Shown: positions 3,373 to 17,075 of the stretch, in pieces
Layout: each line of letters opens with the position of its first letter
Position numbering within the stretch: the first letter of the stretch is position 1
Translations under genes and position numbers: made by a program
The notes under the pieces: model-generated
Seen by the model: only the letters and a program-made list of their open reading frames with translations
Told to the model about the DNA's origin: nothing
Database searches by the model: none
NCBI GenBank assembly: GCA_016192455.1
Contig: JACPUC010000010.1
Location: 95,278 to 159,277 of the forward strand
DNA from: Candidatus Tectimicrobiota bacterium
GTDB taxonomy: Bacteria > JACPUC01
Direction of reading: 5' to 3'
Length of the DNA: 64,000 nucleotides

Positions 3373-5016
3373 TCAGTGTTCGGTAACCTCCTCCGGGGTG
3401 GGCCGGGCCCGCAGCGAGTAGTACTCTTTCAGCCAGTCGTCGCGGTCAATCGCCATCACCGGCTTATACGTGATATCGGACAGCCCGTATTCATCCCAGC
3501 GCTTCTTGGTGGCCTCGTCGATATCGTTCTCAAGCACCTGGATGGGTGGGTAGACGCTGTAGTTCCACTGCTCCCAGCGCTGGAAGTTCCAGTTGCGCGT
3601 CGCGTCCACCAGCACGCGACACCACTTCCCGGAACCGAATTTCGTAATGTCGCGCTCCTCGAGGCGCGTGCTCGGGTCCAGAGGCGCGCCGTGGCAGCCG
3701 GGGCGGAACTCGATGTCGCCGACTTCGGCGTTCACCCGCCAGGCATAGGCCCATTCCATTTCTTCCGGGTTGTGAATATCGATGTCTTCCTCGACGACGG
3801 TAACGTTCTTGAACATCCATTGGGCGGCGTTCGAGGCCCACAGGGCGGCGGCCGCCTGTTTGGCCTGACCGCGGTAGGTCTTGTGAATTTGCACCGCGAT
3901 ATTGGCCGCGAAGTTCAGGTGCGAGGTGAAGACGTCGGTCACGCCCGGCACGCCGGCCGTCTCCAGGATGTTCCAGGCCATGGCGGAAAAGGCGATAGAG
4001 GCGAAGGTGCCGGTTTCGTTCGGCCAGCCTGGACGGAATCCTTCCAGGGAGCCCTCGAAGATGGGATTGTTGCGGTGGCTGATGCAGTCGACGCGGATGG
4101 TCGGTTTCAGCGAGGCGGCGCCGCCGTAGTACCCGGTGTACTCGCCGAAAGGCCCTTCGAGGCGGAGGTCTTTTTGGTCGATGGAGACGATGCCTTCAAG
4201 GACGTACTCCGCGTGCGCCGGAACGAGCAGGTCCGAGGTTTCACACTTCACGAGTTCGATGGGGCGCCCGCGCATGGCGCTCGCCACCTCGTACTCGTTG
4301 GTCCCCGCCGGCAAGGGGGTGCCGGCGCAGAAGCGCAGGATCGGGTCAAAGCCGATGACGACGGCCGCCGGCATCGGGTAGCGGCCAATCTTGTACTTCG
4401 AGTAATGAATGCCCCAGTGTTGCGCCGCGATCAGCAGGCAGGAGATGAGATTCCTTTCGTTGGGAACGATCATGCCGCGGTACGTCCCAACGTTCAGGAT
4501 GCCGGTTTCCGGGTCCTTCGTCACGACCGAGCACGAGGTGTTGATGTAGCGGCCGCCGTCCCACTTGTGCCACCTCGGCACGGGAAGGGCGTCCAGGTCG
4601 ATGTCGCGCCCCCGAATGATGTTCTCTTTCACCGGCCCCCCGCCAACCTGAACGGGGGCGAGACGTTTCTTGAACCCGTCGCGGCACGCCTTGATCATCT
4701 CTTTGTTCGTCGTCTCAGGAGAAAGCCCCAGAAGCGTGGCGATGCGCCGGTACTTCGCCAGCGACCCAGAGACCACCTTGCTGCCCAGCGGGTTCTTCTG
4801 GTACCCCTTGATGTTCTCGAACAGCAGGGCGGGACCCTGCGCGGCCATGACCTTGCGCACGATGGTTCCCAGTTCCTCCTCTGGACTCACCTCCGCCTTG
4901 ATGCGCCGCAGCTCACCTTCCTTCTCCAAGAGCTGGATCCAGCTCCGGAGATCCGTAATCTCAGATGCCGAATCCGAGCCGCGCCAACTTCTTAATTCCG
5001 CTTCTTTCAGTGCCAT
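3373..5016 (-). CDS. UbiD family decarboxylase (canonical active site)
   Basis: A 547-aa UbiD-superfamily enzyme, expected to use prenylated FMN plus a divalent metal and K+ for reversible (de)carboxylation of an aromatic or alpha,beta-unsaturated acid in the cytoplasm. The cofactor and catalytic residues of the family are visible: the Asn and Arg of NVGTYRGMIV, a His in the following QHWGIHY segment, the Glu of AEYVLEG, and the Glu-Arg-Glu network pair in EGPFGEYTGYYGG. The length is slightly above the usual 450-500 aa because of an N-terminal extension of about 25 residues. I chose the ATG at 5016 (AGGAGG with 5-nt spacing) over the GTG at 5019. No UbiX flavin prenyltransferase is present in the window, so the cofactor must be supplied from elsewhere. 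Substrate unknown. Confidence 0.92.
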   Translation of the reverse strand: MALKEAELRSWRGSDSASEITDLRSWIQLLEKEGELRRIKAEVSPEEELGTIVRKVMAAQGPALLFENIKGYQKNPLGSKVVSGSLAKYRRIATLLGLSPETTNKEMIKACRDGFKKRLAPVQVGGGPVKENIIRGRDIDLDALPVPRWHKWDGGRYINTSCSVVTKDPETGILNVGTYRGMIVPNERNLISCLLIAAQHWGIHYSKYKIGRYPMPAAVVIGFDPILRFCAGTPLPAGTNEYEVASAMRGRPIELVKCETSDLLVPAHAEYVLEGIVSIDQKDLRLEGPFGEYTGYYGGAASLKPTIRVDCISHRNNPIFEGSLEGFRPGWPNETGTFASIAFSAMAWNILETAGVPGVTDVFTSHLNFAANIAVQIHKTYRGQAKQAAAALWASNAAQWMFKNVTVVEEDIDIHNPEEMEWAYAWRVNAEVGDIEFRPGCHGAPLDPSTRLEERDITKFGSGKWCRVLVDATRNWNFQRWEQWNYSVYPPIQVLENDIDEATKKRWDEYGLSDITYKPVMAIDRDDWLKEYYSLRARPTPEEVTEH

Positions 5017-5549
5017 CACTACCTCCTCCCGTGGATTTCCCCCTTGCCGACCTGCGGCGGCTGTCCGCCCTTCCTTCGCAGCCCGCAGGCGAAGCTGGCC
5101 TTCTCACCAGACCTCGCATCTCTCAGCCCCTGGCGGGATGCCAGAGGGCATCCTGCGCTCGTAACCCAGCCCGCCGTTACCGCAACAGCCCCTTCTTCCA
5201 GCTTCGCTCATCGAGGCCGCGTGATTAGTCCTGCCCTCGAGCAGCGGGGGAATCTCCGGTCATCGGCGGTCGCCCGATGATTCGACCCCATGCGAGGAGT
5301 GATAAAAGGAACGGCTCGCAGCGCGGACCAAATATATTTTGGATATATTATCCTTCAGGGTGCAGGCAGACGCTGGTTATTTCCATGACCTTTGTCAAGA
5401 TTTGCGGAAATTTCGGCCCTGCTTGCGCTGTGGACACCCCTGACTTCAGCGGGAGGGCGGCTCAAGGACGCGCCCGTCAGGAAGGGGAGCGTGCCGGTTC
5501 CTGCCCCGAGATTGCAGGGCACCGGGGCTATCAAGGTGGGCGAGCCGGC
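5017..5549. other. Intergenic region upstream of ubiD-like gene
   Basis: About 530 bp without a convincing gene. It is GC-rich except for an AT-rich island at 5328-5352 that carries a short dyad, described separately. The minus-strand decarboxylase gene at 5016 starts about 310 bp from that island, so the leader may be long. Confidence 0.4.
5328..5342. promoter_or_regulatory. AT-rich dyad, candidate operator/promoter
   Basis: CCAAA-TATAT-TTTGG is a perfect 5-bp inverted repeat with a 5-nt AT centre, next to GGATATATTATCC. It is the only strongly AT-rich patch in several kilobases of GC-rich sequence and lies upstream of the minus-strand UbiD gene. I see no clean sigma70 pair around it, so an activator-dependent promoter or a regulator site is possible. 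Confidence 0.3.
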
Positions 5550-6808: not shown

Positions 6809-7327
6809 CTACAGGCCAAGGAGGCGTTCCACCTCTGGAATCACCGCTTCGGCCTTGCGCCGCAGCTCCTCCTCATCCGCGTTGGCGATGGGGTGCGCCG
6901 TGCCGGCGAAGGCGTAATCGGCCTTGCCCCAGCTCGCCGCCATGGCGCGGCCCGTCTCCATGAACGCATCGGTGCAGATCACCGCCGCCGGCGTGCCGCG
7001 CTTCTCCAAGAGAATCCCGTCGAGCACACTGCTCGAGCTGCACGACCCTCAGTCGCCGATGCCGGCGATGACGACATCGCACTGCCGCGCCAGCTCCGCA
7101 ACCAGCTCATCGCTGGCCGGCATGGAGGCCGTGAACTTGCGCCGCTCGATGAGGGCGGCGACGCCGTGCTTCTCCTGCAGCAGCCTCCCCACCAGCCGCA
7201 GCAGGCGGTCGCTGTTGGTCTTCGTGTTGTCGAGCAGGCCCACCACCTTGCCCCGCAAGGAGCCGAGGCGCGCGGCAAGCTCGAAGCCGCCGGTCTCTGG
7301 CCCGGCCGTCGGATCGAAGACTTTCAT
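6809..7327 (-). CDS. UGSC-motif selenoprotein (in-frame TGA = Sec93)
   Basis: A 172-aa protein read through a TGA at 7049-7051. The upstream part (MKVFDPTAGPETGGFELAAR to DVVIAGIGD) and the downstream part (SSSSVLDGILLEKRGTPAAV to VIPEVERLLGL) are in the same frame, and the join reads GIGD-U-GSC, exactly the signature of the UGSC selenoprotein family known from marine metagenome selenoproteome surveys. The ATG at 7327 has GGAGGAGA 4 nt upstream. Twenty nucleotides after the TGA is the 3-nt loop of a 7-bp hairpin that fits a bacterial SECIS element. The family probably is a redox protein using the Sec-Gly-Ser-Cys pair, but its reaction is unknown. An ordinary gene caller would break it into two ORFs. 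No sel genes are in the window. Confidence 0.85.
7020..7036 (-). promoter_or_regulatory. Candidate bacterial SECIS hairpin
   Basis: On the minus strand, TCGAGCA-GTG-TGCTCGA forms a perfect 7-bp stem with a 3-nt GTG loop. The loop G is the 20th nucleotide after the TGA codon at 7049-7051, inside the 16-37 nt window known for bacterial SECIS elements, which need a G in the apical loop. It lies within the coding region, as expected in bacteria. Confidence 0.75.
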
Positions 7328-7382: not shown

Positions 7383-7589
7383 TCAATCGTTTGGCAGCCG
7401 AGCACCGCGCTCGCGCTTGTCGATACTCTTCAGTTCACGCCGAGCCGTCTGAAGGAGCCTGTCCCTGGCCCATCCTGACAAGCTCAATCCTGCTGCAGCC
7501 GCCGCGCGTTGGAAGTATTCCGCCATCTCAGCGCTGACGCGGACCTGCAAAGGACGATCGTGCTTACGCTTTGGCGGGTTCTTCATCAT
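7383..7589 (-). CDS. Putative ribbon-helix-helix protein
   Basis: A 68-aa basic protein. The segment RPLQVRVSAEMAEYFQRAAA followed by AGLSLSGWARDRLLQTARRE has the strand-helix-helix pattern of ribbon-helix-helix repressors and antitoxins. The start is unclear: two adjacent ATG codons (7589, 7586) lack a good Shine-Dalgarno sequence. It is transcribed away from the MT-A70 gene at 7802, so it may mark the edge of the restriction-modification island or regulate it. No toxin partner is visible. Confidence 0.5.
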   Translation of the reverse strand: MMKNPPKRKHDRPLQVRVSAEMAEYFQRAAAAAGLSLSGWARDRLLQTARRELKSIDKRERGARLPND

Positions 7590-7801
7590 CCGTACGTCTA
7601 CTGCCAGGGGTACGAAAAGTCAAGACCAGCAAGGACTTTGCCGGCGCGCCGACATTTGCCTTGCAATGTACTGCCAGTGGCATTACATTTTGGAATGGAG
7701 GCGGAGCTGCCGCGCCACCCTCTTGGTCCCACCGGCAATGGGGGCGGGATTCCGACACGTCGCAGGAGCACGCCCCAACTGGTCATGGAGCATAGCAAGC
7801 T

Positions 7802-8476
7802 ATGGAACTCTTCCCGCTGACGAACAACTGTGAACAAGAGCAATCAGGCAAACGGCCTCTCGAAGCACTCTATGCAGGTGATCAGGACATCAATGAGATT
7901 ACCGGCCGATTTGGAACCATCCTCATAGATCCGCCCTGGAGATTCCTGAATAGAACGGGCAAGATGGCCCCAGAACATAAGAGGCTTCGCCGCTACAGAA
8001 CCATGAGCTTTGCAGAGATCGCTGCCTTACCAATTGCAAAATTCGCCTGCGAGAAAAGCCACCTATACCTCTGGTGTCCGAATGCCTTGCTTCTCGAAGG
8101 CTTGACTATTATGAAATCGTGGGGCTTCGAGTACAAGACGAATATCGTTTGGTATAAAGTCCGCAAGGATGGTGGCCCCGATGGCCGCGGTGTGGGATTC
8201 TACTTTAGAAATGTCACTGAGCTTGTTCTATTCGGTGTCAAGGGCACTCTGCGAACCCTGAAGCCAGGTAGAAGTCAAGTTAATATTATCGTTTGTCGCA
8301 AGAGGGAACACTCACGCAAGCCAGAGAAAATATACGATGTCATCCAGAGATGCAGCCCGGGCCCTTACCTTGAGCTCTTCGCAAGGGAGAAAGTAACCGG
8401 TTGGACGCAGTGGGGTGACGAATTGGCGACCTACGAGCGCACGAAACCGAACCACAAAGGGTACAGTTGGTCATGA
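7802..8476 (+). CDS. MT-A70 family DNA adenine methyltransferase
   Basis: A 224-aa methyltransferase of the MT-A70 class. The catalytic DPPW motif is at residues 43-46 (GTILIDPPWRF), followed by HLYLWCPNALLLEGL and the C-terminal SAM-site segment EKIYDVIQRCSPGPYLELFARE typical of the family. It would transfer a methyl group to N6 of adenine in DNA. GGAG lies about 11 nt before the ATG, a weak ribosome site. The gene points toward the BglII-like endonuclease gene and ends 21 bp from its 3' end. It may protect or modify a second motif, or be part of the same defence island. Base composition is AT-richer than the flanks, which suggests transfer. Confidence 0.85.
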   Translation: MELFPLTNNCEQEQSGKRPLEALYAGDQDINEITGRFGTILIDPPWRFLNRTGKMAPEHKRLRRYRTMSFAEIAALPIAKFACEKSHLYLWCPNALLLEGLTIMKSWGFEYKTNIVWYKVRKDGGPDGRGVGFYFRNVTELVLFGVKGTLRTLKPGRSQVNIIVCRKREHSRKPEKIYDVIQRCSPGPYLELFAREKVTGWTQWGDELATYERTKPNHKGYSWS

Positions 8477-8497
8477 AGCTGGATCATTCAACACCAT

Positions 8498-9127
8498 CTA
8501 ACGGTTTATTCGCTGATGAACTTTTTCGTAAACCTGACGTACCCGTTGGCGATCAGAAAGATGATAATCATCGCTCTCTAAAGGCATGTCAACCAGGATG
8601 ATATTAACTGGAACTGAAGGAAAATTTTTCGACAAGCGTTCTAAATCGTAAACCAACTGTTCCCCATAGGATACCCCTGAAGACATCTGCCGCTGAAGAA
8701 AATGACATGGCACAATCTCCACTCCAAGACGAATTGTACCCTTATTGTAAAAGTATTGAAACTTAGCCAGATCATAAAACATGAAAGCATATTTCCCAAA
8801 CTGTACTTCGACGAGCACCGGTTCCTTATAGAAATCACACTGCTTATATGCCCCGAAGATCTTGTGCGGGTAGTTGGGGATTTCAATATCATAAAAGTCT
8901 TTGAGCTCACCCCAACCATAGTGATAGAATAGATTCTTGAATAGCTGATTTATTTCTTTTGGAGAGTAAAGTTGCTTATCTAATTTCGTCTTCTCCTTAC
9001 TCTTTTTGTTGCGACCGGGATTCTCTACTTGCAGTATTATATTCTTCAGCTGCTCATATACTTCAGGAAACCTGACAAGGAGAATTTCCTCGCCACCAAG
9101 ATGAGAATAGGTATAAACAATATCCAC
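8498..9127 (-). CDS. Type II restriction endonuclease, BglII/BstYI-like
   Basis: A 209-aa protein. The active-site arrangement of BglII, Asp-x8-Glu-x-Gln, is present at D98, E107 and Q109 (CDFYKEPVLVEVQFGKYAF), with Gln in place of the usual PD-(D/E)xK lysine exactly as in BglII. The upstream HKIFGAYKQ and downstream DLAKFQYFYNKGTIRLGVEI also suit this family. It probably cleaves AGATCT or a related GATC-centred site, but specificity is inferred. It lies 30 bp downstream of the cognate-looking methylase on the same strand. The gene is much more AT-rich than its surroundings, a strong sign of acquisition. Confidence 0.82.
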   Translation of the reverse strand: MDIVYTYSHLGGEEILLVRFPEVYEQLKNIILQVENPGRNKKSKEKTKLDKQLYSPKEINQLFKNLFYHYGWGELKDFYDIEIPNYPHKIFGAYKQCDFYKEPVLVEVQFGKYAFMFYDLAKFQYFYNKGTIRLGVEIVPCHFLQRQMSSGVSYGEQLVYDLERLSKNFPSVPVNIILVDMPLESDDYHLSDRQRVRQVYEKVHQRINR

Positions 9128-9157
9128 AGTAATGAGTTATCCTTTCTAGGATACTAG

Positions 9158-10030
9158 TTAGGACTGTTGCTTAAAGGGGTTTCTTGTCAAAGAGGTATCC
9201 TGAGGAGGTTCGTAGATCTCCCGCCCCATGGGTCGGACCTGCAAGAGCCCCTCGGCCGCCAAGCCGGCGCGCGCAAGTGCAATTTCTAGATACTTGGCAT
9301 CGAGCTCGGCCCCCGCCACGCGACGCCCATGTCGCACCGCAGCCACTGCGGTTGAGCCAACCCCCATGAACGGATCGAAAACTAGATTATCTTTTTCCGT
9401 GAGACCCAAGACTAACCTTTCAACCAGTTCAACCGGGAACTGACAGGGGTGCTCAGTCTTTTCAATATGATTGTGTTTCACATTTGGAATAACCCACACG
9501 TCTCCTGGATTCTTGCCGAGAGGATTGCAGGAGTACTCTCCGGCCTTCGGTCCCTTAAAATATCGCTTCCCCGGATACTTCTGGGGCACACGCAGAGCGT
9601 CGAGGTTGAAAATGTAGTCAGCGGATTTCGTGAACCAGAGAATGACCTCGTACCGTCCGGAAAATCGTCTCGAACAATGCAGTCCATGCTCAAAGTGCCA
9701 GACAATACGATTCCTCATCTTCAAACCATGCCGTTGAAATGCTGGATAAAGAAGCACATCTAAAGGTATGATCGAACCGCGTTCTACGTAGTTCCCAACT
9801 TGCCAGCAGATGCTACCGCGTTCATTGAGAATTCTGACGCATTCAGTAATCACGCCAGCCTGTTGTGCTACGTAGAGATCAATATCGAGTTTATTCTCAT
9901 ATACTTTGCCCAAGTTATACGGTGGCGAGGTTACAATGAGTTGTGCACTATTCTCAGGGATCGTGGCAAGAAGGGCGAGGCAGTCGCCGTGAAACAGGGT
10001 TACACGGTTCTCAGCTCGGTACTCCGACAT
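9158..10030 (-). CDS. Beta-class DNA methyltransferase of the BglII-like R-M system
   Basis: A 290-aa SAM-dependent DNA methyltransferase. Motif order is catalytic first (LIVTSPPYNLG near the N-terminus) and SAM-binding last (LVFDPFMGVGSTAVAAVRHG), which is the beta class. The SPPY form is typical of N4-cytosine methylases such as M.BglII and M.BamHI, though N6-adenine activity cannot be ruled out. I prefer the ATG at 10030 (MSEYRAENRVTLFHGDC); a GTG at 10078 with a GGGG tract upstream is the alternative. It precedes the endonuclease gene by 30 bp, so host protection would be made first. Confidence 0.87.
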   Translation of the reverse strand: MSEYRAENRVTLFHGDCLALLATIPENSAQLIVTSPPYNLGKVYENKLDIDLYVAQQAGVITECVRILNERGSICWQVGNYVERGSIIPLDVLLYPAFQRHGLKMRNRIVWHFEHGLHCSRRFSGRYEVILWFTKSADYIFNLDALRVPQKYPGKRYFKGPKAGEYSCNPLGKNPGDVWVIPNVKHNHIEKTEHPCQFPVELVERLVLGLTEKDNLVFDPFMGVGSTAVAAVRHGRRVAGAELDAKYLEIALARAGLAAEGLLQVRPMGREIYEPPQDTSLTRNPFKQQS

Positions 10031-10191
10031 AACGCCGAAAGGGATACCCAATGAGAGGTGAAGCTGTCGTCCTGTCACCTTATCATCCCCATGTTAGGCT
10101 TGAAGAATTGCTCAAGTGCAACCTTCTCCCGTTTCAGCACCGTACAGTCACCCCATGTGGAAACTCAGTGTATTGCGTCGCCCGCGGGACG

Positions 10192-11256
10192 TCAACCTTC
10201 CCTTTGCGCCACCCGCTTCGTGACGCTGTGGGTGCTGAGGCCGCCGGCCCAGCCGGGGACGAAGGCGGAGAAGCGCCCGGCGTCGCCGCCGGCGGCGATG
10301 ACCATGATCTCCTCCGGCGCCGGCACGGCGGTCTTCATCGTCCTCTCGTCCTCCGGGGTGATGGGGCCGGGGAGGCGCCCGGCGCGCTTTACCTCGGCGA
10401 GGGGGCGGCGGGCCTTCTCGAAGAGGTAGCCGCGGATGCGCGACTTGTCCCAGCCGGCGCCGGCGATCGTCTGGCGATGCTCGCCGCTGATGACGATGAG
10501 GGCCTCGGTGCGTCCCATGATGTTCGCCGCACCCAGCGTCACCATGGAGTCGGCGATGGTGTCGAGGATGCCCTCCGGGCTGCGGCTGGTGTGGTTGCTC
10601 ACCGAGTGCGGCGCGTCGGCGGCGAAGACGGTTACGGCGCTCTCCGCCGCCGCGAAGCCGCGCTCGACGTGCATCGGCGTCCAGGGGCTGTCGGCTTCGT
10701 CCTCGGCGATGCAGTAGGTGTACTTGCCGGGATGCCCGAGGGTGGCGCGGTCGAGCTGGCCGGGGATGGCCCCGCAGACGTTCATGAGGACGAGGCGCAC
10801 GGCCCGACCGATGCCGGCGTTAGCCCGCCAGCCCTGGCCGAACAGATTCGCCTTGCTGTTCACGCCGATGGCCCGGGCGATCGGCCCATGGACGATGACC
10901 AGGACCGCCACGCCGGCGGTGCTTGCCACCGGCCCGTGCAGGCCAAAGCGCGGATCGCACATCGCCTCCATGGCCGCCGCCAGCACCGGCATGTATTCCG
11001 GCAGGCACCCCGCCATCACCGCGTTGATCGCCAGCTTCTCGGCGGTAATGACACGCTGGCGCTCGTGGACCGTGCCCAGCACCCTCTCCGGGGCGAGGTC
11101 CGCGGCGGCGAGCATGGCCCGGATGCGCGGCTCGGTCGGCGGCACGATGGGCAGCCCATCGGTCCAGCCGCGCTCATGGTAAAGCTCCATGGCCGCCACC
11201 TCATCGTGCGCCTCGTAGCTTCTCGAAGTAAGCGGGGCTTGCGTCCCTTGGCTCAT
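10192..11256 (-). CDS. Uncharacterised protein (WTDGLPIVPPTE family)
   Basis: A 354-aa soluble protein with no signal peptide. Recognisable blocks are ELYHERGWTDGLPIVPPTE near residue 30, NAVMAGCLPEYMPVLAAAME, STAGVAVLVIVHGPIARAIG and GQGWRANAGIGRAVRLVLMN. I have met this block order in environmental proteins linked with UGSC-type selenoproteins, but that is recollection and not shown here. Two cysteines (GCLPEY, MCDPRFG) in the N-terminal half could be functional. The ATG at 11256 was chosen because GAGG lies 9 nt upstream; longer starts exist at 11274 and 11322. Its nearest co-directional neighbours are the flavin reductase and SDR genes about 470 bp upstream. Function unknown. Confidence 0.7.
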   Translation of the reverse strand: MSQGTQAPLTSRSYEAHDEVAAMELYHERGWTDGLPIVPPTEPRIRAMLAAADLAPERVLGTVHERQRVITAEKLAINAVMAGCLPEYMPVLAAAMEAMCDPRFGLHGPVASTAGVAVLVIVHGPIARAIGVNSKANLFGQGWRANAGIGRAVRLVLMNVCGAIPGQLDRATLGHPGKYTYCIAEDEADSPWTPMHVERGFAAAESAVTVFAADAPHSVSNHTSRSPEGILDTIADSMVTLGAANIMGRTEALIVISGEHRQTIAGAGWDKSRIRGYLFEKARRPLAEVKRAGRLPGPITPEDERTMKTAVPAPEEIMVIAAGGDAGRFSAFVPGWAGGLSTHSVTKRVAQREG

Positions 11257-11722
11257 GGGCGTTTCCCTCTCCATGCGGCTCCGCGCCGACGTGGCATGTT
11301 TCAGCACAGCCGCTCTGGGCATCGACGCCCGAGGGCTATGCCGCCGCCCTCCCTTCGTCGGCGGGCAGCTTTATGGTAAGGCGCTGATTCCCTGCGGAAA
11401 GGAACTTGTTCGACTGCTGATCCGGAAGTTTGATCCTTCTTGTTGCCCATCGGCTGACCATCCCGGCCTCCCTCGCACTGACAATCCAGCCTTGCCCGCC
11501 GGGCCAGCGGAAAGACGATGCGATCGCTTCTTTGATGCCCGCCTTGGTCGTACCCGACCTGTTCCCGCCATCGGAATCCGCATCTTCGCAATGATCAGCG
11601 ATACACGGTCCAGTTCAACTGCATCTAAGAAGTTTCGGCATCATCGGGATACACCGACCAAACTTGTAAGTCTGCTCACACGCACCGCGGGACGCTCTTT
11701 CCGCGCCGCTCCTTTCCGCCTC
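11257..11722. other. Gene-free spacer of 466 bp
   Basis: No supportable gene. Overlapping chance frames on both strands have no motif or good ribosome site. It probably contains the promoter of the uncharacterised gene ending at 10192, but no clear element was found. Confidence 0.4.
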
Positions 11723-13554: not shown

Positions 13555-13762
13555 CGTCACCTGATACACCGACCCCGCGCCGCCTCCTTCCGCACTGCCT
13601 CCGGCAGCGGGCGCGCGAGATGCCCCACGCCGCGGAGCGCGCGCAGCATGCACAGCCAGAGCGGGCGGCTGCCGGTTGACAGAGTGGCCAGGGATTGCTA
13701 CGAATCGCCAGAAGCGGGGTGAGGGCGCCGCCGGCGAATGCAGCGCGGGGAGAGATGACAGC

Positions 13763-15184
13763 ATGGCTTCTGACGGGAATGTCGAGTTCAGTCTGCGCGG
13801 TTACGTGATGGACCTCGCCCGCGAGCTCCCCGGGGCCTGCGAACGTCTGCCTGCGCCGGTCGACCGGCGGCGCCAGCCGGAGGGGCTCGCCGCCGAGCTT
13901 GCCGGGCAGGACCGCTGGCCGGTGCTCTGGGGAGAGCTGCCGGGGAGCAGCCCGTGCGGCGTCGCGGCGAACCTCTTTGCGGACCGCGCCCGCATGGCGG
14001 CCTGGTTTGGTGCGCCGCCGGAGCGGCTCAGCGCGGCGCTCCTCGGTCGTCTGGCGGGAGCCGGGCGCGCCGGGATGCGGCGCGAGGCGGGGCAGGCGCC
14101 GGTGCGGCAGGTGATCCTGCACGGGGAAGAGGTTGATCTCACGGCGCTGGCGATCCCCCGGCACGGCGGCGCGGGCGGCGCCGTGATCACCGGCGGGCTG
14201 CTCATCACCTGCGACCCCGGCGACGGCAAGGAGCGCATCTGCCAGCAGCGCGCCCTGATCACCTCGCCGACCAGCCTCGCCCTCCCCCTCGACCACCACA
14301 GCCAGCTCAGCCGCGCCGCCGATGCCGCCCGCCTGCGCGGCGAGCGCCTGCGCGCCGTCCTCTGGATCGGCCACCACCCCGCCCTGGTGCTGGCGGCGGC
14401 CTGCCTGGGGGAGCGGGCTGAGGTTTGGGAGCGTCTCGGCGCGGCGATCAACCGCGACCTGGCCGTCACCCCGTCGCTGAGCTTCGGCAAGGCGCTGTGC
14501 GTCCCCGCCGAGGCGGAGCTGGCGCTGGAGGGGGAGATCGACCCGAGCGCCCGCGAGGAGCACGCCGGCTTCCCCGCCGGCAACGGCTGCACGGCCGGCC
14601 CCACGCCGGCCCTGCGGATGGAGGTGCGCTGCCTGAGCCGGCGGGCGGAAGCCTGGTGGTGCGACGTAGTGCCGGAGCAGCTTGATGCCTACCAGCTCTC
14701 GGGCGTGCCCCTCGAGGTCGCCCTCCTCGACGAGGTGGGACGCCGGGCGCCGTCGCTGCGCAACGTCCACGTGCCGCCCACCGCCGGCGGCGCCCTGCAC
14801 GCCTATCTGCAACTCAAGGAGCCCCGCAAGGGAGAGGCCCGCGAGGCCATCCTCACCGCCTTGCCGGTGGACGCGCGCCTGAAACACGTCTTCGTCGTCG
14901 ATGACGACGTGAACATCTTCGACGACCGCGAGGTGCTGTGGGCGCTGGCCACGCGCTCGCAGTGGGAGCGCGATGTCCTCATCATGCCAGGGCTGCGCGG
15001 CTCGCGCCTCGACCCGCTGGCCGAGGGGGGCGTGGGGGTGAAGGGGGGTTTCGACTGCACCCGCCCGGCAGGCGAGAGCTACAGCGAGCGCAACGCCGTG
15101 TCACCGTCGGTCTACGCCGAGGTGCGCATCGAGGATTACCTCGACGCGGCGCACCTGGCGCGCATCCCCGTCGAGCGGCAGTAG
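13763..15184 (+). CDS. UbiD-like protein lacking the usual catalytic glutamates
   Basis: A 473-aa UbiD-superfamily protein by overall pattern: WIGHHPA, CVPAEAELALEGEI, PSLRNVHVPPTAGGALHAYL, HVFVVDDDVNIFDDREVLWA and KGGFDCTRP all match the family. However, the segment that should read EGPFGEYTGY is replaced by HAGFPAGNGCTAG, so both active-site Glu residues are gone, and the metal-binding Asn before the conserved Arg is Arg (KERICQQR). This predicts a non-catalytic or altered subunit. It is followed by a tiny zinc ribbon and a canonical UbiD gene on the same strand, like the paired UbiD-like subunits of phenylphosphate carboxylase. I chose the ATG at 13763 (MASDGNVEF), with GGGGAGAG upstream. 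Substrate unknown. Confidence 0.85.
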   Translation: MASDGNVEFSLRGYVMDLARELPGACERLPAPVDRRRQPEGLAAELAGQDRWPVLWGELPGSSPCGVAANLFADRARMAAWFGAPPERLSAALLGRLAGAGRAGMRREAGQAPVRQVILHGEEVDLTALAIPRHGGAGGAVITGGLLITCDPGDGKERICQQRALITSPTSLALPLDHHSQLSRAADAARLRGERLRAVLWIGHHPALVLAAACLGERAEVWERLGAAINRDLAVTPSLSFGKALCVPAEAELALEGEIDPSAREEHAGFPAGNGCTAGPTPALRMEVRCLSRRAEAWWCDVVPEQLDAYQLSGVPLEVALLDEVGRRAPSLRNVHVPPTAGGALHAYLQLKEPRKGEAREAILTALPVDARLKHVFVVDDDVNIFDDREVLWALATRSQWERDVLIMPGLRGSRLDPLAEGGVGVKGGFDCTRPAGESYSERNAVSPSVYAEVRIEDYLDAAHLARIPVERQ

Positions 15185-15573: not shown

Positions 15574-15627
15574 CGGGCAGGCTGCCATTTTTTTTTGGGG
15601 GACCATTGCTCCCCCACACCCCCATCC

Positions 15628-15655
15628 GTAGGGGCGGTTCGCGAACCGCCCTTAC
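15628..15655. repeat. 28-bp palindrome, copy 3 (one mismatch)
   Basis: Same unit as at 2994 and 15258, but the right arm reads CCCTTAC rather than CCCCTAC. It lies between the zinc-ribbon gene and the second UbiD gene, so each junction of this three-gene cluster carries one copy. Confidence 0.82.
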
Positions 15656-15728
15656 AAAGCGGGGTGCGCGAGGGGGCACTGCTCCCTCGCAGCTCTCCTG
15701 CTTAGAGCGCGCGGTTCGAGGAGCGGCG

Positions 15729-17075
15729 ATGCAGGTAGACCTCCAGAGCTTTCTGCGGGAGTACGAGAAGGAGCACCCGGAGGACGTGGTGCGGATCGAT
15801 AAGGAGATCGGCATCGAGGAGGAGGTCTCCACCCTCTGCGTCAAGCTCGAGGAGCAGTGCCGCTACCCGATCATCTACTGCACCAACGTCGTCAACCGCA
15901 TGGGGCGCCGCTACGAGATGCCGCTCGTCTTCAACCTGCTGGCCAGCCGCAGCCGCTGCGCGCGCGCCCTGGGCTCGGACGTGCGCAGCGTCGGGCGGGA
16001 CTTCTACAACCTGTCGCGGCTGCAGACGATCCCGCCGGTGGTGGTGCGGCGCGAGGAGGCCTTGGTGAAGCAGCGGGTGCTGCGCGGCGAGGCCATCGAC
16101 CTGTTCTCGCTGCCGGCCCTGGTGCACCATCGCCAGGACCCCGGCCAGTACTTCACCGCCGGTTTCCTCACCACCATCGATCCCGACAGCGGCGTCGACA
16201 ACTGCTCGCTGCAGCGCGGCTGGATCGTCGGGCCGCGCACCATGCGCTGCCTGCTCAGCCCCTACTCGCACAACCGCTACAACTACGACAAGCTGGAGGC
16301 GCGCGGCGAGGACACGCGCATGGCCTACTGGATCGGCCATCACCCCCTGGTGTGCCTGGGTGCGCAGGTGCGCCTCGGCTATCCGGAGAGCCACTACGGC
16401 GCCATCGGCGGCATCCTGCGCCAGCCGCTGCGGCTCGTCCCCTCGGAGACCCTCGGCAATGACTTCCTCGTCCCCGCCGACGCGGAGGTCGTCATCGAGG
16501 GGCGGCTCATCGCCAACAAGCGCGTGCCGGAGGGGCCGTTCGGCGAGTACACCGGTTACACCGGCCCGCAGGTGCCGAGCCTCGAGTTGCAGGTCTCCTG
16601 CATGACACACCGCCAGGGCGCCCACTGGCACGATATCTTTACTGGCCACGCCGACACGCTGATTATGGGCTCGTTCGCCCTCGAAGGAGTGACGTACGAG
16701 GCCGTGAAGCAGCGCGTGCCGTCGCTGAAGAACGTCTACCTGCCGCTCTCCGGCGCCAGCCGCTTCAACATCTACCTGCAGCTCGAGGGGGCGCGGCGCG
16801 GCGATGCCCGCGAGGCGATCATGACGGCGCTGCCGCTCGACTACCGCCACAAGCACGTCTTCGTCTTCGATGAGGACATTGACATCTTCGACGAGCGGCA
16901 GGTGATGTGGGCCCTGGCGACGCGCAGCCGCCTGGACCGCGATATGATGATCTTTCCGAAGGTGCGCGGCTCCGTCCTTGACCCGAGCATCGTCGATGAG
17001 CTGACAACCAAGGGCGGCATCGACTGCACCATCCCGCCCGGCGACACGCGGCCGCCGCGCTACAGCGTCCGCTAG
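15729..17075 (+). CDS. UbiD family decarboxylase (canonical active site)
   Basis: A 448-aa UbiD enzyme with all expected residues: Asn and Arg of DNCSLQRGWIV, His of SPYSHNRYN, the metal Glu of AEVVIEGRL, and the catalytic Glu pair in EGPFGEYTGYTGPQ. The C-terminal SLKNVYLPLSGASRFNIYLQ and KHVFVFDEDIDIFDERQVMW are family hallmarks. The ATG at 15729 has GAGGAG 5 nt upstream. It should bind prenylated FMN and catalyse the (de)carboxylation step; the divergent partner at 13763 and the zinc ribbon at 15415 may complete a heteromeric enzyme. No ubiX is nearby. Confidence 0.92.
   Translation: MQVDLQSFLREYEKEHPEDVVRIDKEIGIEEEVSTLCVKLEEQCRYPIIYCTNVVNRMGRRYEMPLVFNLLASRSRCARALGSDVRSVGRDFYNLSRLQTIPPVVVRREEALVKQRVLRGEAIDLFSLPALVHHRQDPGQYFTAGFLTTIDPDSGVDNCSLQRGWIVGPRTMRCLLSPYSHNRYNYDKLEARGEDTRMAYWIGHHPLVCLGAQVRLGYPESHYGAIGGILRQPLRLVPSETLGNDFLVPADAEVVIEGRLIANKRVPEGPFGEYTGYTGPQVPSLELQVSCMTHRQGAHWHDIFTGHADTLIMGSFALEGVTYEAVKQRVPSLKNVYLPLSGASRFNIYLQLEGARRGDAREAIMTALPLDYRHKHVFVFDEDIDIFDERQVMWALATRSRLDRDMMIFPKVRGSVLDPSIVDELTTKGGIDCTIPPGDTRPPRYSVR

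What the first reader, a model, noticed from the sequence alone, without database searches (positions are those of the whole stretch)
6809..7327. Hidden UGSC selenoprotein split by an in-frame TGA
The two ORFs at 7049-7327 and 6809-7048 are one frame. The join reads GIGD-TGA-GSC, the defining motif of the UGSC selenoprotein family. A perfect 7-bp hairpin with a GTG loop lies 20 nt after the TGA, as a bacterial SECIS needs. So the host should have the Sec machinery (selA, selB, selC, selD), which is not in this window.
Basis: partly seen in the sequence, partly recalled or inferred. Interest (0 to 1): 0.78.

Follow-up and report, generated by a model that had tools for sequence, protein, structure and literature searches.

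The report
UGSC selenoprotein with in-frame TGA
A gene that looks cut in two by a stop codon is almost certainly one small enzyme that carries the rare amino acid selenocysteine at that codon; the family is known but has no assigned function, and it nearly always sits next to, or is fused to, one particular uncharacterised protein.

Summary
Window 6809-7327 (-) is one 172-residue gene with an in-frame TGA (7049-7051) inside GIGD-U-GSC. Read through, it passes the curated cut-offs of NCBIfam UGSC_fam and Pfam UGSC. The host genome has selA, selB, selC (anticodon TCA) and selD, plus two more UGSC genes with TGA. In 94 gene copies from 80 fetched loci the codon is TGA in 90 and Cys in 4. A 7-bp hairpin with a GUG loop 19 nt after the TGA is kept in 97 of 98 TGA copies, with compensatory changes, and in none of the 4 Cys copies. 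So this is a new member of a known selenoprotein family.

Following it further: (1) the predicted fold is a flavodoxin/Rossmann-like sandwich, not the thioredoxin fold suggested in 2008, and its Sec half matches the Sec end of GrdB/PrdB; (2) UGSC has a near-constant partner without any Pfam or NCBIfam model ('GWTDG', here 10192-11322): 20 shared genomes of 21 and 22 among 386, adjacent in most loci, fused in 13. Here a low-GC restriction-modification island splits the pair. I propose a two-part, GrdB-like selenol reductase; the substrate is unknown.

The parts
6809..7327 (-). UGSC-family selenoprotein gene, 172 aa when TGA is read as Sec
   Evidence: one frame with a single internal TGA; NF041046 153.6 bits over cut-off 125; PF24696 197 bits over cut-off 25
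7049..7051 (-). Sec codon TGA (residue 93) of the U93-G-S-C96 motif
   Evidence: TGA in 90 of 94 homologous copies, Cys in the other 4
7020..7036 (-). bacterial SECIS-type hairpin in the coding sequence: 7-bp stem, GUG loop at 7029-7027
   Evidence: -8.4 kcal/mol alone; all 7 pairs in 97 of 98 TGA copies, in 0 of 4 Cys copies; compensatory changes at 3 pairs
10192..11322 (-). 'GWTDG' protein, 376 aa, constant partner of UGSC; no Pfam or NCBIfam family
   Evidence: co-occurrence and adjacency
7383..10078 (.). low-GC type II restriction-modification island lying between the two partner genes (not part of the selenoprotein system): N6/N4 DNA methylase 9158-10078 (-), BglII-like endonuclease 8498-9127 (-), MT-A70 methylase 7802-8476 (+), small DNA-binding-like ORF 7383-7589 (-)
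   Evidence: Pfam and PADLOC matches; GC 0.40-0.52 against 0.65-0.72 in the flanks

Best explanation
The gene makes a full-length UGSC selenoprotein. SelB with Sec-tRNA reads the hairpin at 7036-7020 and inserts Sec at the TGA at 7049-7051 (strongly supported by comparison; not shown by experiment). The protein is a flavodoxin/Rossmann-like sandwich with Sec93 and Cys96 at the start of a helix, and it is a remote relative of the Sec-bearing end of GrdB/PrdB, the selenoprotein subunits of the Stickland reductases (supported by profile comparison). It works together with the GWTDG protein encoded just upstream (supported by co-occurrence, adjacency and fusions). Inferred: GWTDG holds an organic substrate, the Sec93 selenolate attacks it and breaks a carbon-heteroatom or similar activated bond, and the resulting Se-S bond with Cys96 is reset by a thiol or flavin donor. 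The substrate is not known.
For: Selenoprotein: frame and family; selA, selB, selC with anticodon TCA, selD; 90 TGA: 3 TGC: 1 TGT; hairpin kept in 97/98 TGA copies and 0/4 Cys copies; Ser100 codon is AGT in 90 of 90 TGA copies against 2.9% AGT among Ser codons nearby; covariation score 0.348 against 0.105 in shuffles and at most 0.033 when slid; published bSECIS limits: 3-9 nt loop, 4-16 bp, G in the first two loop positions, 16-37 nt spacing; all met. Fold: (pLDDT 92, five alternating strand-helix units). GrdB relation: hhalign P 5.5e-7 with U as C and 2.8e-6 with Sec masked as X, Sec aligned on Sec and the HP[IL] motif on its counterpart; controls P 0.23, 0.14, 0.019. Partner: 20 genomes hold both, of 22 with GWTDG and 21 with UGSC among 386; 13 in-frame fusions and 79 adjacent pairs of 97.
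Against: No experiment and no expression data. The host is a fragmented assembly (31 contigs, 88% complete), so the sel genes and the window lie on different contigs. The GrdB relation is remote (about 25% identity over 89-94 columns), and Foldseek against the PDB gave only generic Rossmann-like matches. GWTDG shows no profile relation to GrdE, the partner of GrdB (P 0.43), so the analogy may not reach the substrate-holding step. Neighbouring genes give no common substrate.
Confidence: 0.6

Rival explanations
1. UGSC is a true selenoprotein, but a thioredoxin-like thiol-disulfide oxidoreductase, as suggested when the family was named; it needs no substrate-holding partner.
For: UxxC motif at the start of a helix; [quoted passage not shown]
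Against: The confident model has five alternating strand-helix units and its best matches are flavodoxin/Rossmann-like; the profile matches GrdB/PrdB; the near-constant GWTDG partner is not expected of a general thiol oxidoreductase.
Confidence: 0.12
2. UGSC is a selenoprotein partner of GWTDG, but it transfers electrons or selenium to GWTDG rather than attacking the substrate itself.
For: Adjacency, fusion and co-occurrence fit any two-part enzyme; flavodoxin-like fold.
Against: No flavin or metal site was shown; U-G-[ST]-C and its surroundings resemble GrdB, where the protein with Sec acts in catalysis on the substrate-bearing subunit (established knowledge of glycine and proline reductases).
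Confidence: 0.22
3. The gene is a pseudogene, or two genes, and TGA is an ordinary stop or a sequencing error.
For: In the window the pair GWTDG-UGSC has been split by an inserted restriction-modification island, which could have cost the gene its transcription.
Against: TGA at the same codon in 90 of 94 copies from many lineages, a covarying hairpin, two more TGA paralogues and full Sec machinery in the same genome; no other frame damage.
Confidence: 0.03

Closest known systems
UGSC family (seleno)protein, NCBIfam NF041046 / Pfam PF24696; reported in the GOS survey of 2008 (PMC2398784)
   Same: Same family over the curated cut-offs, same UGSC motif, same Sec/Cys alternation
   Different: Nothing essential; here the gene is separated from its usual neighbour by an acquired restriction-modification island
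GrdB / PrdB, selenoprotein subunits of glycine, sarcosine, betaine and D-proline reductases (PF07355, TIGR01918, TIGR04483)
   Same: Remote profile match around U-G-[ST]-C and the following helix, strand and HP motif
   Different: UGSC is 172 aa against about 435; it lacks the GrdB N-terminal region; its partner GWTDG is not detectably GrdE-like; reaction unknown
Unknown_1 domain fused to UGSC in GOS sequences (PMC2398784)
   Same: A conserved domain fused to UGSC, as GWTDG is in 13 loci here
   Different: The 2008 alignment is in a supplement I could not read, so identity of Unknown_1 with GWTDG is only a guess

Membership tests
UGSC family (seleno)protein (NF041046, PF24696) | Score over the curated cut-offs | tested here: met
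   153.6 bits over 125; 197.2 over 25, along residues 3-170
UGSC family (seleno)protein (NF041046, PF24696) | U/C-G-S-C motif with TGA or Cys codon | tested here: met
   GIGD-U-GSC; TGA 90, Cys 4 in homologues
Bacterial selenoprotein gene | SECIS hairpin after the UGA within published limits | tested here: met
   3-nt GUG loop, 7 bp, 19 nt spacing, -8.4 kcal/mol for the 17-nt hairpin alone against the limits in PMC13188914
Bacterial selenoprotein gene | selA, selB, selC, selD in the host | tested here: met
   SelA 491.5 bits, SelB wing 75.8 bits, tRNA-Sec 75.5 bits with anticodon TCA, SelD 389.3 bits with its own TGA
Bacterial selenoprotein gene | Sec present in the protein | not testable with these tools
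   needs 75Se labelling or mass spectrometry
GrdB/PrdB (PF07355) | Direct match to the family profile | tested here: not met
   Pfam lists only PF24696 over its cut-off; NCBIfam lists only NF041046; the relation is seen only by profile-profile comparison
GrdB/PrdB (PF07355) | GrdE-type partner subunit | tested here: not met
   GWTDG against GrdE: P 0.43. A GrdE gene does lie 5.6 kb upstream of the C5 paralogue, with its own GrdB
Thioredoxin-like fold | Thioredoxin fold in the model | tested here: inconclusive
   The model and its listed matches are flavodoxin/Rossmann-like, but a family that is not listed is not excluded by that search

The most novel reading that the evidence does not exclude
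UGSC and GWTDG together form an undescribed class of two-part selenoenzyme: a GrdB-like selenol subunit paired with a substrate-holding subunit of a family that has no model, breaking an activated bond in an organic compound in soil, groundwater and marine bacteria.
Probability: 0.4. Interest if true: 0.65.

Novelty: new member of a known kind. Interest (0 to 1): 0.42.

Why it matters
UGSC proteins are among the commonest selenoproteins in aquatic samples (255 sequences in the 2008 GOS survey), yet no function is assigned. A near-constant partner protein, a remote tie to the Stickland reductases and a non-thioredoxin fold turn 'redox protein of unknown role' into a testable two-protein enzyme. 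The case also shows again that standard gene calling cuts such genes at the TGA.

Tried and rejected
A first alignment mixed wrong strands and was replaced. I first took the C7 paralogue for a UGSC-GWTDG fusion; the frames differ, so it is an adjacent pair. The neighbour survey gave only scattered catabolic and transport families (MFS, SDR, amidohydrolase, TctC, UbiD, AMP-binding), so no substrate was inferred. GWTDG fold search gave weak matches only (cyclic amide hydrolases by Foldseek; best Z 6.2 to chorismate mutase over 84-91 residues), so no fold is claimed. GWTDG as a GrdE relative: rejected at profile level. Phylum-limited searches returned a single genome. No thioredoxin structure is in the top 50 structural matches, which is not proof of absence. 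No clear target-site repeats were found at the island edges.

Full report
What is there. On the minus strand, ATG at 7327 to TAG at 6809 is one frame broken only by TGA at 7049-7051. The read-through protein has 172 residues and scores 153.6 bits against NCBIfam NF041046 (cut-off 125) and 197 bits against Pfam PF24696 (cut-off 25) over residues 3-170, so both halves belong to the same domain. The hairpin stem starts 12 nt after the TGA and its loop 19 nt after it.

Is the TGA a Sec codon? The genome that holds the window (4.46 Mb, 31 contigs, 88% complete) contains SelA (491.5 bits, with an SGDK motif), SelB (winged-helix domain in a 706-codon frame), one tRNA-Sec with anticodon TCA and a SelD that itself has an in-frame TGA. 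Two further UGSC genes in the same genome also carry TGA, as do three GrdB-type genes and one PrdB-like gene. In 80 loci fetched from other genomes, 94 UGSC copies have TGA (90), TGC (3) or TGT (1) at this codon. The search patterns did not include the codon itself.

Is the hairpin a SECIS? The stem UCGAGCA-GUG-UGCUCGA is present with all seven pairs in 97 of 98 TGA copies and in none of the four Cys copies. The Cys homologue L043 encodes the same GSCSSGSVLDGI downstream but uses GGT TCG where the Sec genes use GGC AGT, and the stem is lost. Ser100 is AGT in 90 of 90 TGA copies, while AGT is 2.9% of Ser codons in the same genes. Three of seven pairs change on both sides, and the covariation score is 0.348 against 0.105 in shuffles and at most 0.033 when the partner is slid. 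The published constraints of a bacterial SECIS (PMC13188914) are all met.

Fold and relatives. AlphaFold2 on eight family members gives a confident model (pLDDT 92) of alternating strands and helices, with Sec93 and Cys96 at the start of the helix after strand 85-91. PDB matches are generic flavodoxin/Rossmann-like folds. [quoted passage not shown]); the model does not look like that, though such a search cannot exclude it. Pfam's GrdB model stops just before the Sec of GrdB. When GrdB and PrdB-like genes are read through their own TGA, their tail (UGTCTRCG...ELERAGLPTVHICT...PHPLGNPE) resembles UGSC (UGSCSSSS...LLEKRGTPAAVICT...AHPIANAD). Profile comparison gives P 5.5e-7, and 2.8e-6 with the Sec masked, against 0.23 to GrdB cut at the TGA, 0.14 to GWTDG and 0.019 to GrdE.

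The partner. The protein at 10192-11322, here called GWTDG after its GWTDGLP motif, matches no Pfam or NCBIfam family, nor do 31 homologues clearly match any Pfam family. In the fetched loci it lies beside UGSC: 73 pairs GWTDG-UGSC and 6 pairs UGSC-GWTDG within 300 bp, and 13 in-frame UGSC-GWTDG fusions, out of 97 copies with a GWTDG in the locus. Many of these loci come from one group (Rokubacteria), so they are not independent. Among 386 genomes sampled from the same domain, 22 have GWTDG and 21 have UGSC, and 20 are the same. The exceptions are fragments or weak matches. The Cys-type UGSC genes have the same neighbour, so the link does not depend on selenium. The 2008 survey noted a UGSC fusion to an 'Unknown_1' domain; it may be the same protein.

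The window's special feature. Here GWTDG and UGSC keep order and strand but are 2.9 kb apart. Between them lie a BglII-like endonuclease, two DNA methylases and a small DNA-binding-like ORF, with GC down to 0.40 in a 0.65-0.72 background. The likeliest reading is a restriction-modification island inserted into the operon. Whether UGSC is still transcribed well is not known.

Mechanism. Shown by comparison: Sec insertion at 7049-7051, the hairpin, the partner link. Supported: a GrdB-like Sec domain. Inferred: by analogy with glycine and proline reductases, the selenolate attacks a substrate held by the partner and is released through a Se-S bond with Cys96. In the C5 locus a GrdE-GrdB pair, an acyl-CoA-ligase-type enzyme and a fumarate-reductase-type flavoprotein lie around GWTDG-UGSC, which fits reductive metabolism of organic acids but is one case. 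I put the selenoprotein reading at about 0.97 and the GrdB-like two-part mechanism at about 0.6.

Novelty. The gene is a new member of a known family. The partner link and the GrdB relation were not found in the papers searched, a library that lacks most subscription journals; I would call them useful leads rather than established news.

Noticed in passing
window 7383-10078: Low-GC type II restriction-modification island (BglII-like endonuclease, N6/N4 methylase, MT-A70 methylase) sitting between two genes that are adjacent in nearly all relatives.
   Followed up: partly
L121, L127, L128 (own genome C31, C30, C5): Three GrdB-type selenoprotein genes with GrdE next to them; they read UGTS or UGTG where L120 has UGTC, keeping only the Cys at +6 from Sec.
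   Followed up: partly
L129 / L132 (own genome C25): PrdB-like gene with in-frame TGA (UPACHQS); NCBIfam PrdB 106.7 bits, below its cut-off of 300.
   Followed up: no
window 3373-5019, 13676-15184, 15606-17075; L110 6771-8132: Several UbiD-type decarboxylases near UGSC loci in this genome (the one at 15606-17075 judged from its translation only).
   Followed up: no
Pfam PF07355 against L120, L121, L127, L128: The GrdB profile ends exactly before the Sec codon, probably because its seed proteins were cut at TGA.
   Followed up: partly
L043 2548-3057, L049 6208-6651 and 8001-8519, L084 8001-8477: Cys versions of UGSC in a Burkholderiales MAG and two actinobacteria, all without the hairpin but with the GWTDG neighbour.
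   Followed up: yes
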